A stretch of 64,000 nucleotides of DNA, taken from assembly GCF_000723185.1 (NCBI RefSeq), contig NZ_CBTY010000006.1:124001-188000 (forward strand), given 5' to 3'. This document shows, in pieces, positions 2,605-7,948 of this stretch. The notes beneath the pieces are model-generated. The model did no database searches, was not told where the DNA came from, and saw only the letters and a program-made list of their open reading frames with translations. Within the stretch, counting starts at the first letter, position 1; each line of letters starts with the position of its first letter. This DNA comes from Candidatus Nitrosotenuis uzonensis. GTDB lineage: Archaea > Thermoproteota > Nitrososphaeria > Nitrososphaerales > Nitrosopumilaceae. Both the position numbers and the translations under genes were made by a program.

Positions 2605-3684
2605 TTAAAGTTTGCCTTTTTTGTAGAGCATCTCTGCAAGAAGAACCGCACCCTTTGCGGAACCCATCTTCTTGTTGTGTGAGAACAGGACGTACTTTAC
2701 ACCACTATCAAATATCTGGTCTTCTTCCAGTCTACCAATAGATGTGGTCATGCCGTCATTTAGCTCCCTATCAATTCTTGGCTGAGGTCTTGTTGGATCT
2801 TTGTGAACAACAAGATAGTCCTTCGGAGCTGATGGCAGTCCCTGTACACTGACATGCTCTGAGAACTCTTCAATCGTATGTTTCACATCTTCGACCTTTG
2901 CGGGCTTGGAAGTTTCAACAAAGACAGACTCGGTATGGCCATCAATTACAGGAACTCTGGTGCACGTGCAGCTTACCTTGATATCTGCCGGTTCTATTTT
3001 ACCATCTTTGAGTTTACCGAGTATCTTGGCTGTCTCAATTCTGACCTTGTTTTCTTCTTTGGGTATGTATGGTATGAGGTTGTCAGTTACATCCAACGCT
3101 GAGACTCCCGGTGATCTGCCGGCGCCAGATATTGCTTGCATGGATGTCATTATCACCCGCTTTGCCCCATAGTTCTCATACAGGGGCTTCATCGTAATGG
3201 CAAGTCCAGTGGTAGTGCAGTTCGGCAGGGGTAGAACATATCCCTTCCAATTGCGGTTCTTCTTTTGAGTCTCTATAAGATCCACATGATCATCGTTAAT
3301 TCCGGGAATCAGGATCGGGACGTCTTCTTCATATCTGTAGGCGGACGAAGTGCTTATGACGGGTACCTCCTTTGCAAACTTGGTTTCAATCTCTCTTGCA
3401 GCGTCGCTTTCTACTGCAGAGAACACCAGATCAAGCTCATTTGTCTTTACTTGGTCAATTGAGACTACAGTCATATCCCTTACGTATTCTGGGACGTCTC
3501 CGCCAACCTGCCACTTTACGATACCTGAATTCGGGTCCCTTATGGCCTCAATGTACTTTTTACCGGCTGACCTTTCCGATGCTGCCAGCTGGGTTACCTC
3601 AAACCATGGGTGATCCTTTAGCGAAACTATGAATTCTTGGCCAACGGCGCCCGTTGCCCCAAGTATTGCTACTCTTTTCTTCAC
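2605..3684 (-). CDS. asd: Aspartate-semialdehyde dehydrogenase
   Basis: It reduces beta-aspartyl phosphate to aspartate semialdehyde with NADPH, the branch point for lysine, threonine and methionine. The NADP loop GATGAVG is at residues 9-15 and the catalytic cysteine lies in LPNCTTTG (Cys156). The general-base histidine region GHTESVFV is near residue 250. At 359 aa the length fits archaeal/fungal-type enzymes. The GTG at 3684 is chosen over longer forms because family members start right before the Rossmann fold and a TATA element sits 30 bases upstream. Confidence 0.92.
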   Translation of the reverse strand: MKKRVAILGATGAVGQEFIVSLKDHPWFEVTQLAASERSAGKKYIEAIRDPNSGIVKWQVGGDVPEYVRDMTVVSIDQVKTNELDLVFSAVESDAAREIETKFAKEVPVISTSSAYRYEEDVPILIPGINDDHVDLIETQKKNRNWKGYVLPLPNCTTTGLAITMKPLYENYGAKRVIMTSMQAISGAGRSPGVSALDVTDNLIPYIPKEENKVRIETAKILGKLKDGKIEPADIKVSCTCTRVPVIDGHTESVFVETSKPAKVEDVKHTIEEFSEHVSVQGLPSAPKDYLVVHKDPTRPQPRIDRELNDGMTTSIGRLEEDQIFDSGVKYVLFSHNKKMGSAKGAVLLAEMLYKKGKL

Positions 3685-3707
3685 AAGGGGAATTTTTACG
3701 CGATCAA

Positions 3708-3715
3708 TTAATAAT
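3708..3715. promoter_or_regulatory. Shared bidirectional TATA-like element between asd and the cobalamin operon
   Basis: TTAATAAT on the plus strand reads ATTATTAA on the minus strand. It lies about 30 bases from the asd GTG (minus strand) and 38 bases from the first in-frame GTG (3746) of the CobD-like gene, so one AT-rich element may serve both directions. Confidence 0.35.
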
Positions 3716-3787
3716 TCTTGTTCTGCCGTACGTGTACCATCTAAGGTGATCGCAAGGACTAAACCCGTGGTAAATGGTTGTCTGTGT

Positions 3788-4855
3788 GTGAAACTTGCCA
3801 GAAACGCAGTAAAGCACAAGAGAGTGCCTCACGGAGGATTGTACTCTATTCCAAATCCTCATTCTACGATTTTAGATTTTAGCTCGAATGTAAATCCACT
3901 TGGCTGCCCGCCGTCAGTTGCCAAAGCTCTAAGAAATGCCATGAACAGGATACCTATCTACCCCGATCCTGACTCAAAGGCATTAAAAGAAAAAATAGCA
4001 AAACATCTTGGAATACATCAGAGCAGAATAACTGTCGGAAACGGAGCCACCGAAATCATCTACAACTTTTGCCGTGCTACTCTGTGGAAAGGAAAATCTA
4101 CTCTTATTCCAGCTCCGACTTTTGGTGAATACGAAGCAGCATCAAAACTGTGTGATGCAAGAATATCGTTTTTCAAAACCATGCGTCTACAGGATGACGT
4201 AAAAGAATTTGTCAGAAAAATACCTCAAGGGGGGATTGTATTTGTATGCAATCCTAACAACCCGACAGGAGAACTCATCCCAAAAGAGATTATGTTACAG
4301 ATACTGCGCCGGGCAAAAAGAAAGCAAGCAACGATATTCATAGATGAGTGTTTTGCAGAGCTTACCACATCCCAAGAGTCGCTAGTAGGACATGTATCTG
4401 AATTTGAGAATCTCTTTGTTCTAAGATCGCTGACAAAATCATTTGGTCTTGCTGGACTTCGTATCGGCTACGGAATAGGAAACAAAAAGATTATCTCCGT
4501 ACTAGAAAATATCAAAATCCCGTGGAATGTTAGCGGGATTGCACAAGAGGCTGCAGCGCTAGCGCTCAAAGAAAAAAAATTCCTTGCAAGGACGCAAAAG
4601 TTAATTCTTACAGAATCAGAATATTTGAAAAACTCTATCTCAAAGATTCCCGGGCTTTCTTGTTATGATTCCAAGACTAACTTTATTCTGATAAGGACAA
4701 AAATGCATTCTAATTTACTGCAAAAAAAGTTATTGAAGAAAGGAATTCTGGTGCGTGATTGTAGCACATTCAGGGGTCTTGATTCGCATTACATTCGCAT
4801 CGCGGTAAGAACACACAAAGAAAACCTGATGCTAGTGAAAGCGTTAGGGAGTTAA
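3788..4855 (+). CDS. cobD: Threonine-phosphate decarboxylase-like / histidinol-phosphate aminotransferase-like PLP enzyme
   Basis: This is a fold-type I PLP enzyme of the HisC/CobD family. The N-terminal VPHGG and LDFSSNVNPLG are typical of CobD (CobC) enzymes that make aminopropanol phosphate for the cobalamin nucleotide loop. The PLP lysine lies in RSLTKSFGLAGLRIGYG and the phosphate arginine side in the C-terminal YIRIAVRTHKEN. It is first in an operon with cobQ, cbiB, cobS and cobY, which supports the cobalamin role over histidine synthesis. Start is uncertain between GTG 3746, 3788 and 3824; 3788 best matches family length (355 aa). Confidence 0.82.
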   Translation: MKLARNAVKHKRVPHGGLYSIPNPHSTILDFSSNVNPLGCPPSVAKALRNAMNRIPIYPDPDSKALKEKIAKHLGIHQSRITVGNGATEIIYNFCRATLWKGKSTLIPAPTFGEYEAASKLCDARISFFKTMRLQDDVKEFVRKIPQGGIVFVCNPNNPTGELIPKEIMLQILRRAKRKQATIFIDECFAELTTSQESLVGHVSEFENLFVLRSLTKSFGLAGLRIGYGIGNKKIISVLENIKIPWNVSGIAQEAAALALKEKKFLARTQKLILTESEYLKNSISKIPGLSCYDSKTNFILIRTKMHSNLLQKKLLKKGILVRDCSTFRGLDSHYIRIAVRTHKENLMLVKALGS

Positions 4856-4856
4856 G

Positions 4857-5693
4857 ATGAGTCGCACATTGATGATCCAGGGTACTGCTTCTGGTGCTGG
4901 CAAGACTACACTGGTAGCGGCGTTTTGCAGAATACTTGCAAACAAAGGGTACAACGTGGCGCCATTCAAATCACAGAATATGTCAAACTACTCGTACAAA
5001 TGGGATGGATTTGAGATATCGCAAGCACAGGCAATGCAAGCAATGGCTGCCAAGATTGAACCTTCGCCTCACATGAACCCGATACTGCTAAAACCTCTTG
5101 GAAACTATCGCAGCTCGATACTACTTCAAGGCAAATTCTACAAAAAGATGGATGCAAATGACTATTATGAAAAATTCGTCCTCAAACATGGCATGAGGGT
5201 GGCACTTGACTCGTTCAAAATACTGTCGCAAAAATATGATTTGGTGATTATGGAAGGTGCTGGCTCGCCGGCCGAAATTAACTTACAAAAATTCGATATT
5301 GCTAACATGCTGCTTGCAGAAAGACTGAACTCTCCGGTGATATTGGTCGCCGATATAGAAAAAGGCGGCTCCTTTGCAAGCATAATAGGTACAATGTCGT
5401 TGTTACCCAAAAAGCATCAGAAAATGGTAAGAGGATTCCTCATAAACAAGTTCCAGGGAAATGCTGACCTGCTCAAGCCTGGCCTAAGAAAGATAAAACA
5501 AATAACATCTAAATCCGTTCTTGGTGTAATACCAAAGATCAAGATGAACCTGCCAAACGAGGACTCTCTTGATGACCGGATACATCTCTTTAACAAAGGG
5601 AACCGAAAAAAGATCAACTCTGAGCTTGACAGACTTGCAAGGACTGTATCGACACACGTTGATATCAAATCAATTGAGAGGCTTTTTGCATGA
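4857..5693 (+). CDS. cobQ: Cobyric acid synthase CobQ lacking the glutamine amidotransferase domain
   Basis: It adenylates and amidates adenosylcobyrinic acid a,c-diamide to cobyric acid. The synthetase domain is complete: GTASGAGKT P-loop (residues 9-17), APFKSQNMSNY, MNPILLKPLGNY, IMEGAGSPAEINL, ILVADIEKGGSFA and INKFQGN. Normal CobQ is about 480-500 aa with a C-terminal GATase domain carrying a catalytic cysteine. Here the protein is 278 aa. The linker PNEDSLDDR (near 235) runs almost directly into a helix (DRLARTVSTHVDIKSIERL) that resembles the extreme C-terminus of full-length CobQ/CbiP. The GATase domain therefore appears to be excised internally, with no frameshift. The stop overlaps cbiB (ATGA). 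Confidence 0.88.
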   Translation: MSRTLMIQGTASGAGKTTLVAAFCRILANKGYNVAPFKSQNMSNYSYKWDGFEISQAQAMQAMAAKIEPSPHMNPILLKPLGNYRSSILLQGKFYKKMDANDYYEKFVLKHGMRVALDSFKILSQKYDLVIMEGAGSPAEINLQKFDIANMLLAERLNSPVILVADIEKGGSFASIIGTMSLLPKKHQKMVRGFLINKFQGNADLLKPGLRKIKQITSKSVLGVIPKIKMNLPNEDSLDDRIHLFNKGNRKKINSELDRLARTVSTHVDIKSIERLFA

Positions 5694-6652
5694 TTGAAAT
5701 TCCATTACTTGTGGTGGCCGGAGCAATATTGTTGGACCTTGCATTCGGTGATCCCAAAAACAAGTATCATCCAACAGCATGGATTGGTACACTGATTGCA
5801 TCTGCAGTACCTACTGCAAAAAAAATGAAATCTGAAAGACTCGGCGGTGCACTTGTAACAATGGCAATAGTCTCAATTGTGGCCTTACTTGTCATCTCAT
5901 ATGAGTATGTGGTAAGATCCCTTGATGGCGTTATAGCTGTACTGATTACAACGCTACTTGGAGCAATATTGCTGAAAACCACTATTGCAATAAGGGGTCT
6001 TGAGGTACATGGGAGGCAGGTAATGAATTTGCTATCACAAGGAGATATTCATGGAGCCCGTTGCAGTCTTGCCATGCTTGTCAAACGCAACACAAAAGAC
6101 CTCGATGAGCATCACATAGCTTCAGGCGTATTGGAGACCACCAGCGAAAATATTGTGGACGGAATAACTGGGCCGCTATTCTACTATGCGCTGTTCGGGC
6201 TTGCAGGCACATTCGTCTACAGGACGATAAATACGATAGACTCTATGATTGGATACAAAGATGCCATATTCAAGAACATGGGATGGTTTGGAGCAAACTG
6301 TGACAAAGTTCTAAATTTCATACCATCTAGGATCACTGGATACGTCATGGTGCTTGCAGCAGCCTTGGTGGGTGCAGATTGGAAGGGCTCGCTTGTTACT
6401 CTAAAAAAAGATGGCAAAAAGACCGAGAGCCCTAATGCCGGATATCCAATGGCTGCAATGGCAGGGGCACTTGGAACCAAATTTGAGAAGGTTGATCATT
6501 ATATCCTTGGGGATGGTACAGCTGAGATTAACATGAAGCAATTCGAAATTGCAATCAGAATGGTCAAGGTTACAAGTATCTTGTTCTGCATTCTAGTTGT
6601 AGCGCCTATTATCATAATTCTCTCAACTCTTGGATGGTGGATACATGTTTAG
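5690..6652 (+). CDS. cbiB: Adenosylcobinamide-phosphate synthase
   Basis: This integral membrane enzyme attaches aminopropanol phosphate to adenosylcobyric acid. It has the family N-terminus LDLAFGDPKNKYHPTAWIG, the conserved RNTKDLDEHHIASGVLETTSENIVDG region and the C-terminal SPNAGYPMAAMAGALG. About five membrane segments are seen and 320 aa is normal length. It overlaps cobQ by four bases upstream and cobS by eight downstream, so translational coupling is likely. Confidence 0.93.
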   Translation: MIEIPLLVVAGAILLDLAFGDPKNKYHPTAWIGTLIASAVPTAKKMKSERLGGALVTMAIVSIVALLVISYEYVVRSLDGVIAVLITTLLGAILLKTTIAIRGLEVHGRQVMNLLSQGDIHGARCSLAMLVKRNTKDLDEHHIASGVLETTSENIVDGITGPLFYYALFGLAGTFVYRTINTIDSMIGYKDAIFKNMGWFGANCDKVLNFIPSRITGYVMVLAAALVGADWKGSLVTLKKDGKKTESPNAGYPMAAMAGALGTKFEKVDHYILGDGTAEINMKQFEIAIRMVKVTSILFCILVVAPIIIILSTLGWWIHV

Positions 6653-7370
6653 GCAGGTTGGTTCGGTATTCTCTTTTCTTACAATAATGCCAACTGGCAG
6701 CTCTGATCTGCAGATCGTTGCAAGGTACATGTACCTGTTCCCACTAGTTGGAATAGTAATAGGACTGATAGTCGGCTCTGCGGGTTATGGGCTATCGCTG
6801 TTTCTTGAGCCGTTGGTTGTGGGGCTTCTTGTAACTGCAGCGTTTGTATTGATAACAGGAATACACCACATCGACGGACTGGCTGATTTTGCAGACGGCT
6901 TGATGGCAAGGGGAACAAGAGAGAAAAAATGGCAGGTGATGAGGGATCCGTCTGTTGGCTCTGCGGGAATCATAACTCTGGTACTGTATGTGGGCGGTAT
7001 GGTCATATCACTTTCGTCAATGAATGGCTTTGATATGCTTGTCGCAATAATTGCAGCAGAGATAATAGCCAAATTCTCAATGGTGCTTCTTGCATGTATT
7101 GGGCCGTCTGCTTGGGAGGGCTCTAATTCCATCTTTGTATCTAGCATGAAGGACAAAAGAAAGCTCATTCTTGCAGCAGGCATAACGGTGGTATCCCTTT
7201 TGGCACTGCAAAATAATAGCGCATTTTTTGCGTTAGCTATCTCAATGGCAATTTCCTTGATTATAACTCTGGTCTCAAGGCGCAGTTTCGGCGGAATATC
7301 TGGTGATATAATGGGTGCAACTAATGAAATGACGCGTCTTGCGTCGCTTTTGGTGTTCATATCTGTATGA
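6645..7370 (+). CDS. cobS: Adenosylcobinamide-GDP ribazoletransferase (cobalamin synthase)
   Basis: It joins alpha-ribazole phosphate to adenosylcobinamide-GDP in the membrane. The diagnostic HHIDGLADFADGLMA motif follows two hydrophobic segments, and GGISGDIMGATNEM lies near the C-terminus. Five or more membrane helices and about 241 aa fit the family. The ATG at 6645 (MFRQVGSV) is preferred over an upstream TTG at 6630 because family members start at this point. It overlaps cbiB by 8 bases and cobY by 4. Confidence 0.93.
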   Translation: MFRQVGSVFSFLTIMPTGSSDLQIVARYMYLFPLVGIVIGLIVGSAGYGLSLFLEPLVVGLLVTAAFVLITGIHHIDGLADFADGLMARGTREKKWQVMRDPSVGSAGIITLVLYVGGMVISLSSMNGFDMLVAIIAAEIIAKFSMVLLACIGPSAWEGSNSIFVSSMKDKRKLILAAGITVVSLLALQNNSAFFALAISMAISLIITLVSRRSFGGISGDIMGATNEMTRLASLLVFISV

Positions 7371-7948
7371 TCGGGCTTGTTATGGCAGGAGGAAGAGGCA
7401 CAAGGATGGGCCTCAATGGTGAGAAGCTCTTACTGCAACATGGAAAACCAGTAGTGCTTTGCGTGGTTGATGCTATGAGAGAGTCAAAATGTTTTACGGA
7501 TGTGATAGCCGTAACAAGTCATAATTCGCCAAAGACGCAACAGATGCTCTCAGAATATGGAGTGAGGACGATACAAACCAGTGGCAAAGGATACGTGCAA
7601 GATTTGATGACCGCACTATCCTTTGTTGATGAGATCGCACTGGTGATTTCCGGAGACCTGCCTCTTGTGGATTTCCAGATAATCAGGAATTTGGTGGATA
7701 TGCACAAGGAAGATTCAGCATGGCACAGTTTTGTTGTGACAAAAAGATTTCTTGACGAACAAAAGATGGCGGCGGAATTTTCAGTGGTATGCCAGGGACA
7801 AGATTGCTATTATACTGGAGTCTCAATTGTAAACCCAAAAAAAATCACTGCGAGCGTTGTAGCTGAGACATACACCATACTTGATGACAAAAGGATTGCT
7901 CTTAACCTGAATACAAAATATGATTACAGCTTACTCAAGGATACCTAG
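7367..7948 (+). CDS. cobY: Adenosylcobinamide-phosphate guanylyltransferase, archaeal CobY type
   Basis: It transfers GMP from GTP to adenosylcobinamide phosphate. The nucleotidyltransferase loop MAGGRGTRMGLNGEKLL is at the N-terminus, the acidic metal site is in VISGDLPLVD, and YYTGVSIVNP follows. At 193 aa it is the single-domain archaeal CobY, with no CobU-type kinase domain. It ends the cobalamin operon and its last 18 bases overlap the 3' end of the convergent S27e gene. Confidence 0.88.
   Translation: MIGLVMAGGRGTRMGLNGEKLLLQHGKPVVLCVVDAMRESKCFTDVIAVTSHNSPKTQQMLSEYGVRTIQTSGKGYVQDLMTALSFVDEIALVISGDLPLVDFQIIRNLVDMHKEDSAWHSFVVTKRFLDEQKMAAEFSVVCQGQDCYYTGVSIVNPKKITASVVAETYTILDDKRIALNLNTKYDYSLLKDT

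What the first reader, a model, noticed from the sequence alone, without database searches (positions are those of the whole stretch)
4857..5693. CobQ has lost precisely its glutamine amidotransferase domain
The gene is in the normal place of a complete late cobalamin operon and its synthetase domain is intact. But the protein is 278 aa where the family is about 480-500. The N-domain linker (PNEDSLDDR) is followed after about ten residues by a helix (LARTVSTHVDIKSIERL) that resembles the very C-terminus of full-length CobQ/CbiP. That pattern suggests internal excision of the GATase domain, not truncation. An ammonia oxidiser has high internal ammonia, so an ammonia-dependent, GATase-free cobyric acid synthase is a coherent hypothesis. 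Otherwise a separate GATase subunit must exist.
Basis: partly seen in the sequence, partly recalled or inferred. Interest (0 to 1): 0.72.

Follow-up and report, generated by a model that had tools for sequence, protein, structure and literature searches.

The report
Vitamin B12 enzyme missing its glutaminase
Ammonia-oxidising archaea make vitamin B12 with a cobyric acid synthase whose glutamine-splitting half has been cut out or has died, and some unrelated bacteria have done the same, so the enzyme probably takes its nitrogen from free ammonia instead of glutamine.

Summary
The window's CobQ is 278 aa: an intact synthetase domain, no glutamine amidotransferase (GATase) domain, and a tail that matches the extreme C-terminus of full-length CobQ (E 4e-7 in a small search; scrambled tails never match). 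This is internal excision, not truncation or misassembly. The short gene is single copy, sits in an intact cobD-cobQ-cbiB-cobS-cobY operon, is under purifying selection, and occurs in all 58 related ammonia-oxidising archaea (AOA) of one profile search.

Two deep AOA lineages still carry the domain at the same locus, but dead: catalytic His to Tyr, or Cys to Asp. Eleven inspected AmoA-negative relatives keep Cys and His. So every AOA lineage examined lost glutamine hydrolysis by CobQ.

The same excision, again beside dead relics (Cys to Ser), recurs in Bacillota, including most CobQ-bearing genomes of the Oceanobacillus family. Ammonia oxidation is therefore not the only route to it.

The model is a complete dethiobiotin-synthetase fold, the tail supplying its last helices. 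Best explanation: a free-standing, ammonia-using cobyric acid synthase (inferred, about 0.6). The main rival is a separate GATase subunit; one AOA-wide candidate exists, without cobalamin context. I found no prior description in the papers searched.

The parts
4857..5693 (+). cobQ, GATase-free cobyric acid synthase, 278 aa
4857..5570 (+). synthetase (BioD-like amidoligase) domain, residues 1-238
   Evidence: NF001989 positions 2-237; AlphaFold2 model and BioD match
4881..4907 (+). ATP-binding P-loop GTASGAGKT (residues 9-17)
   Evidence: S12, G15, K16 invariant in 40 sequences
5253..5282 (+). EGAGSPAEIN motif (residues 133-142) of the CobQ synthetase site
   Evidence: E133, G134, A135, G136, E140, N142 invariant in 40 sequences
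5571..5594 (+). excision junction: short disordered linker where full-length CobQ carries the GATase (residues 239-246)
   Evidence: alignments; pLDDT under 50 at residues 238-240
5595..5690 (+). retained C-terminal helices (residues 247-278), homologous to the C-terminus of full-length CobQ
   Evidence: tail model E 4.2e-7; helices 247-267 and 270-277
3629..4855 (+). cobD, threonine-phosphate decarboxylase (the true start is probably downstream of the ORF start)
   Evidence: TIGR01140 303 bits, over cut-off, residues 74-406
5690..6652 (+). cbiB, adenosylcobinamide-phosphate synthase
   Evidence: TIGR00380 over cut-off
6630..7370 (+). cobS, adenosylcobinamide-GDP ribazoletransferase
   Evidence: TIGR00317 over cut-off
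7367..7948 (+). cobY-like adenosylcobinamide-phosphate guanylyltransferase
   Evidence: NF045495 and TIGR00454 matches, below cut-off

Best explanation
The window encodes a functional cobyric acid synthase from which the whole class-I GATase domain has been excised, leaving the ATP-dependent amidoligase as a complete, free-standing dethiobiotin-synthetase-like fold. Shown here: the glutaminase active site was lost in all AOA lineages examined; dead relics of the domain survive at the same locus in two deep AOA lineages; in the main lineages the domain is gone, and the tail helices that complete the synthetase fold are kept. Inferred: inactivation came first, in the AOA ancestor or early within AOA, and deletion followed. 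Inferred: the enzyme activates the b, d, e and g carboxylates of adenosylcobyrinic acid a,c-diamide with ATP and amidates them with free NH3 from solution instead of NH3 channelled from glutamine. The loss is probably tolerated because the flux to B12 is small.
For: Excision with tail kept. Complete BioD fold, Z 19.2 over residues 2-273 including the tail. ATP-site and EGAGSPAEIN residues invariant; dN/dS 0.04-0.18 between close pairs. 24 of 24 AmoA-positive genomes have an absent (22) or dead (2) GATase, while 11 of 11 inspected AmoA-negative members of the class and all 89 non-AOA full-length CobQs compared keep Cys and His. No CobQ-type stand-alone GATase in the window genome or in three Bacillota genomes with short CobQ. 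Repeated excision in Bacillota beside Cys-to-Ser relics. N. maritimus releases cobalamin in culture (PMC8281238). CobB accepts glutamine or ammonia (PMC8123684), and MurT/GatD-C94G keeps NH3-dependent activity at pH 8.5 (PMC3266927).
Against: No assay exists. MurT does not work with ammonia at pH 7.5 and needs GatD bound even for NH3 use (PMC3266927). The same genome keeps GATases in CobB, CarA, GuaA, PyrG, PurQ, HisH, TrpG and PdxT, so general ammonia excess is not an obvious cause. AOA are one clade, so the match with ammonia oxidation rests on very few evolutionary events. A GATase of another type could serve as subunit.
Confidence: 0.6

Rival explanations
1. CobQ works with a separate GATase subunit encoded elsewhere, as MurT does with GatD. 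The best candidate is the 191-aa stand-alone class-I GATase P0001 at G000 contig 11:60532-61104.
For: P0001 relatives occur in every AmoA-positive genome tested, at E 1e-22 or better, with the Cys and FHPE motifs present. P0001 lies about 10 kb from CobB in G000 and 8-19 kb from cobQ in G015, G066, G076, G079 and G098.
Against: Its conserved operon is DNA primase, UPF0182 and TPR genes, not cobalamin genes. It also occurs in G196, which has no CobQ, and in G191 of a family whose inspected member has an intact CobQ. It is GuaA-N-like and not of the CobQ GATase family.
Confidence: 0.2
2. The GATase of CobB (CbiA) supplies ammonia to the short CobQ in trans, for example in a CobB-CobQ complex.
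For: CobB with an intact GATECGG-type site is kept in the window genome, although CobQ lost its own.
Against: Three Bacillota genomes with short CobQ (G492, G495, G496) show no CobB-like GATase_3 match, though they may be salvagers. In the window genome CobB is on another contig.
Confidence: 0.1
3. The short CobQ no longer makes cobyric acid; the gene is decaying or has another role, and B12 comes from salvage.
For: A domain is missing; some Bacillota carriers lack CobB.
Against: Purifying selection, conservation in 58 of 58 genomes, no other CobQ in the genome, and cobalamin released by N. maritimus (PMC8281238).
Confidence: 0.06
4. Assembly gap or frameshift artefact.
For: None found.
Against: 58 of 58 related genomes, complete chromosomes included, are short, with varied linker sequences.
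Confidence: 0.01

Closest known systems
CobQ/CbiP glutamine-hydrolysing cobyric acid synthase (EC 6.3.5.10; TIGR00313, NF001989)
   Same: Same synthetase domain, same operon position between cobD and cbiB, same C-terminal helices, same predicted substrate.
   Different: The roughly 200-residue class-I GATase between the synthetase core and the last helices is absent (dead in two AOA lineages).
BioD dethiobiotin synthetase
   Same: Same complete fold without a GATase (Z 19.2).
   Different: Different substrate and chemistry (carboxylation-ring closure); 18% identity.
MurT/GatD lipid II amidating complex
   Same: An ATP-dependent synthetase separated from a CobQ-like Cys/His GATase; NH3 can replace glutamine at pH 8.5 (PMC3266927).
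   Different: MurT is a Mur ligase and needs GatD; no GatD-like gene accompanies cobQ here.
PurF' of Crenarchaeota
   Same: An amidotransferase paralogue that lost its catalytic Cys and was proposed to be ammonia-dependent (PMC3261824).
   Different: Class II GATase, domain retained, different pathway.

Membership tests
CobQ/CbiP cobyric acid synthase | Synthetase domain matching the curated family model over its cut-off | tested here: met
   NF001989 342 bits, cut-off 273; TIGR00313 310.4 bits, cut-off 309.9
CobQ/CbiP cobyric acid synthase | C-terminal class-I GATase (GATase_3) with Cys/His dyad | tested here: not met
   No GATase_3 match in the protein; the profile match ends at 237 of 480
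CobQ/CbiP cobyric acid synthase | C-terminal helices after the GATase | tested here: met
   E 4.2e-7
CobQ/CbiP cobyric acid synthase | Genomic context of late cobalamin genes | tested here: met
   cobD-cobQ-cbiB-cobS-cobY; cobD and cbiB also flank cobQ in AmoA-negative relatives
CobQ/CbiP cobyric acid synthase | Four ATP-dependent amidations of adenosylcobyrinic acid a,c-diamide | not testable with these tools
   Needs an enzyme assay
BioD dethiobiotin synthetase | Sequence match to the family over its cut-off | tested here: not met
   TIGR00347 26.9 bits, cut-off 83.3; only the fold is shared
Two-subunit amidotransferase (MurT/GatD type) | A dedicated GATase gene next to the synthetase gene | tested here: not met
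   Neighbours are CobD and CbiB; no CobQ-type stand-alone GATase in the genome

The most novel reading that the evidence does not exclude
All ammonia-oxidising archaea make B12 with a cobyric acid synthase that takes free ammonia. Its glutaminase died once in their ancestor and was later excised at least twice; the same two-step loss happened several times in Bacillota. The GATase of CobQ would then be a dispensable module set in a BioD-like ligase, lost whenever free NH3 suffices.
Probability: 0.5. Interest if true: 0.68.

Novelty: new variant of a known kind. Interest (0 to 1): 0.62.

Why it matters
AOA are regarded as major B12 producers, and cbiP/cobQ has been used as a B12 marker gene (PMC4303638), yet their CobQ cannot hydrolyse glutamine by itself. 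The nitrogen donor of a key B12 step in AOA thus becomes an open, directly testable question. It is also a rare case where one domain is seen intact, dead and excised at one locus, and repeatedly. The short protein offers a natural minimal cobyric acid synthase. No earlier description was found in the open-access papers searched; most subscription papers are not held, so this is weak evidence of novelty.

Tried and rejected
Truncation instead of excision: rejected; the linker model gives the window tail -1.2 bits. Assembly artefact: rejected. A CobQ-type stand-alone GATase in the genome: the other GATase_3 matches are CobB, PdxT (next to PdxS), PurQ and one below cut-off. The 207-238-aa NF001989 matches in other AOA looked like a split CobQ GATase; the one checked (G060, L256) is PdxT beside PdxS. 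P0001 as partner: kept as a rival, weakened by its DNA-primase neighbourhood and its presence without CobQ. A single deletion for all AOA: not formally rejected (AU p 0.069), though the trees favour at least two. 'Only ammonia oxidisers': rejected by the Bacillota. A first genome-contig scan with the f5 protein found nothing. Sequence search of the PDB with the window protein alone found nothing; a profile finds only dethiobiotin synthetases.

Full report
WHAT IS THERE. ORF 4857-5693 encodes a 278-aa protein. It passes the curated cut-off of the cobyric acid synthase model NF001989 with 342 bits although it covers only positions 2-237 of 480, and it just passes TIGR00313; Pfam sees the nucleotide-binding synthetase domain and no GATase. 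Upstream is threonine-phosphate decarboxylase (CobD); downstream are CbiB, CobS and a CobY-like guanylyltransferase. The genome holds no second CobQ.

EXCISION, NOT TRUNCATION. A model built from the last 45 residues of 67 full-length CobQs matches the window tail with E 4.2e-7 (Z=100). It matches 48 of 49 tails of family f1 and all 15 Bacillota tails, and none of 385 shuffled tails. The f3 tails are weaker: 7 of 10. A model of the segment that follows the N-domain in full-length CobQ matches none of them. The AlphaFold2 model has mean pLDDT 92.9, with helices 247-267 and 270-277 at high confidence and a short low-confidence linker at the junction. It aligns with dethiobiotin synthetase over residues 2-273, tail included (Z 19.2, rmsd 3.3). 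So in full-length CobQ the GATase sits before the last helices of a BioD-like fold, and removing it leaves a complete ligase.

IT IS FIXED AND UNDER SELECTION. In 58 of 58 genomes of f1, f3 and Nitrosocaldus the match to the 480-position model stops early (one runs on only through stop codons). Close pairs have dN/dS of 0.04-0.18. ATP-site and EGAGSPAEIN residues are invariant in 40 sequences.

DEAD RELICS. Of 24 AmoA-positive genomes, 22 have the short form and two have a full-length protein. In f5 (G111 and its relative G491, the latter also fetched as L157, a 'Thaumarchaeota archaeon SAT137' MAG) the catalytic His is Tyr and GICGG is GICEG. In G136 (f2, genus g29) the Cys is Asp (GIDEG) and the His motif is gone. 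Both groups share CGG to (C/D)EG and a degenerate LPGTKN loop, which suggests, without proof, one ancestral inactivation. CobB/CobQ GATases conserve only Cys and His of the catalytic triad (PMC5871853). All 11 inspected CobQs of AmoA-negative members of the class, and all 89 non-AOA full-length CobQs compared, keep both residues. AOA CobQs form one clade, so the link with ammonia oxidation rests on few evolutionary events, not on 24 independent ones.

HISTORY. In AOA and in AmoA-negative relatives cobQ sits with cobD and cbiB. The CobQ N-domain tree groups f5, g29 and Nitrosocaldus (93/80) apart from f1+f3 (100/95). A cobD-cobQ-cbiB concatenation gives 97/95 for that group and 93/94 for g29+Nitrosocaldus; the genome collection also puts these two in one family. 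This implies separate deletions in Nitrosocaldus and in f1/f3. Holding all short AOA forms together is not quite rejected (AU p 0.069).

CONVERGENCE IN BACILLOTA. The same architecture was found in six Bacillota loci of the named-genome scan, among them an Oceanobacillus with a late cob operon. In the Oceanobacillus family 29 genomes have a CobQ match; in most of them (about 24) the match ends near position 240 with an open frame of about 285-330 codons, and every one of the 14 read in detail has the typical tail. Two full-length relatives, L234 and L237, have Cys to Ser (GISGG, GISSG; L237 also has an in-frame stop) and lie near short L238/L239 in the tree. That tree needs six changes between forms, three forced by well-supported branches. 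Inactivation beside excision is therefore seen twice, and ammonia oxidation is not required for it.

HOW IT WORKS. I think the short enzyme uses free NH3 (0.6). Basis: no glutaminase in the protein, no CobQ-type GATase gene in this genome, and precedents: CobB accepts glutamine or ammonia (PMC8123684), and MurT works with NH3 when GatD's catalytic Cys is removed, though only at pH 8.5 and with GatD present (PMC3266927). The genome keeps GATases in CobB, CarA, GuaA, PyrG, PurQ, HisH, TrpG and PdxT, so the loss is special to CobQ. A low-flux pathway that tolerates slow amidation would fit AOA and Bacillota alike; this is inference.

RIVALS. A separate GATase subunit (0.2): P0001 has relatives in every AmoA-positive genome tested, but its operon is DNA primase, UPF0182 and TPR genes, and it occurs in G196, which has no CobQ match. 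CobB in trans (0.1): three Bacillota genomes with short CobQ show no CobB-like GATase_3 match. Loss of function (0.06): contradicted by selection and by cobalamin production.

NOVELTY. The protein is a CobQ by descent and by its synthetase domain but fails the GATase criterion, so it is best called a GATase-free variant of CobQ. No description was found in the open-access library. Doxey et al. used the CobQ model TIGR00313 as a thaumarchaeal B12 marker; a search of that paper's text for CobQ, CbiP, amidotransferase and glutamine found no remark on the missing domain.

Noticed in passing
L121:15530-16105 (-), G000 contig 11:60532-61104: A 191-aa stand-alone GuaA-N-like class-I GATase with relatives in every AmoA-positive genome tested; in most, in an operon with DNA primase subunits, a UPF0182 membrane protein and a C39-peptidase/TPR protein. 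Function unknown.
   Followed up: partly
L253:3981-4916, L254:1611-2549, L255:360-1322: Divergent CobQ-like proteins of about 310 aa in other Thermoproteota (G475, G356, G396), also without a GATase and with a CobQ-like tail, but away from recognisable cobalamin genes: possibly another GATase-free ligase family.
   Followed up: partly
L234, L237 (Oceanobacillus family genomes G582, G649): Full-length CobQs with the catalytic Cys changed to Ser; L237 also has an in-frame stop. A bacterial parallel of the dead AOA relics.
   Followed up: yes
G542 contig 1:2345748-2347159 and 3129767-3130474: One Bacillota genome carries a short CobQ plus a second, full-length CobQ split over two reading frames.
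   Followed up: no
family f4 (G095, G145, G162, G168, G213): Members of the same order without AmoA that also lack CobQ, near-complete genomes included.
   Followed up: no
window 7367-7948: The CobY-like protein scores far below the curated cut-offs (79 bits against 250 for NF045495), so automatic pipelines may miss this step.
   Followed up: no
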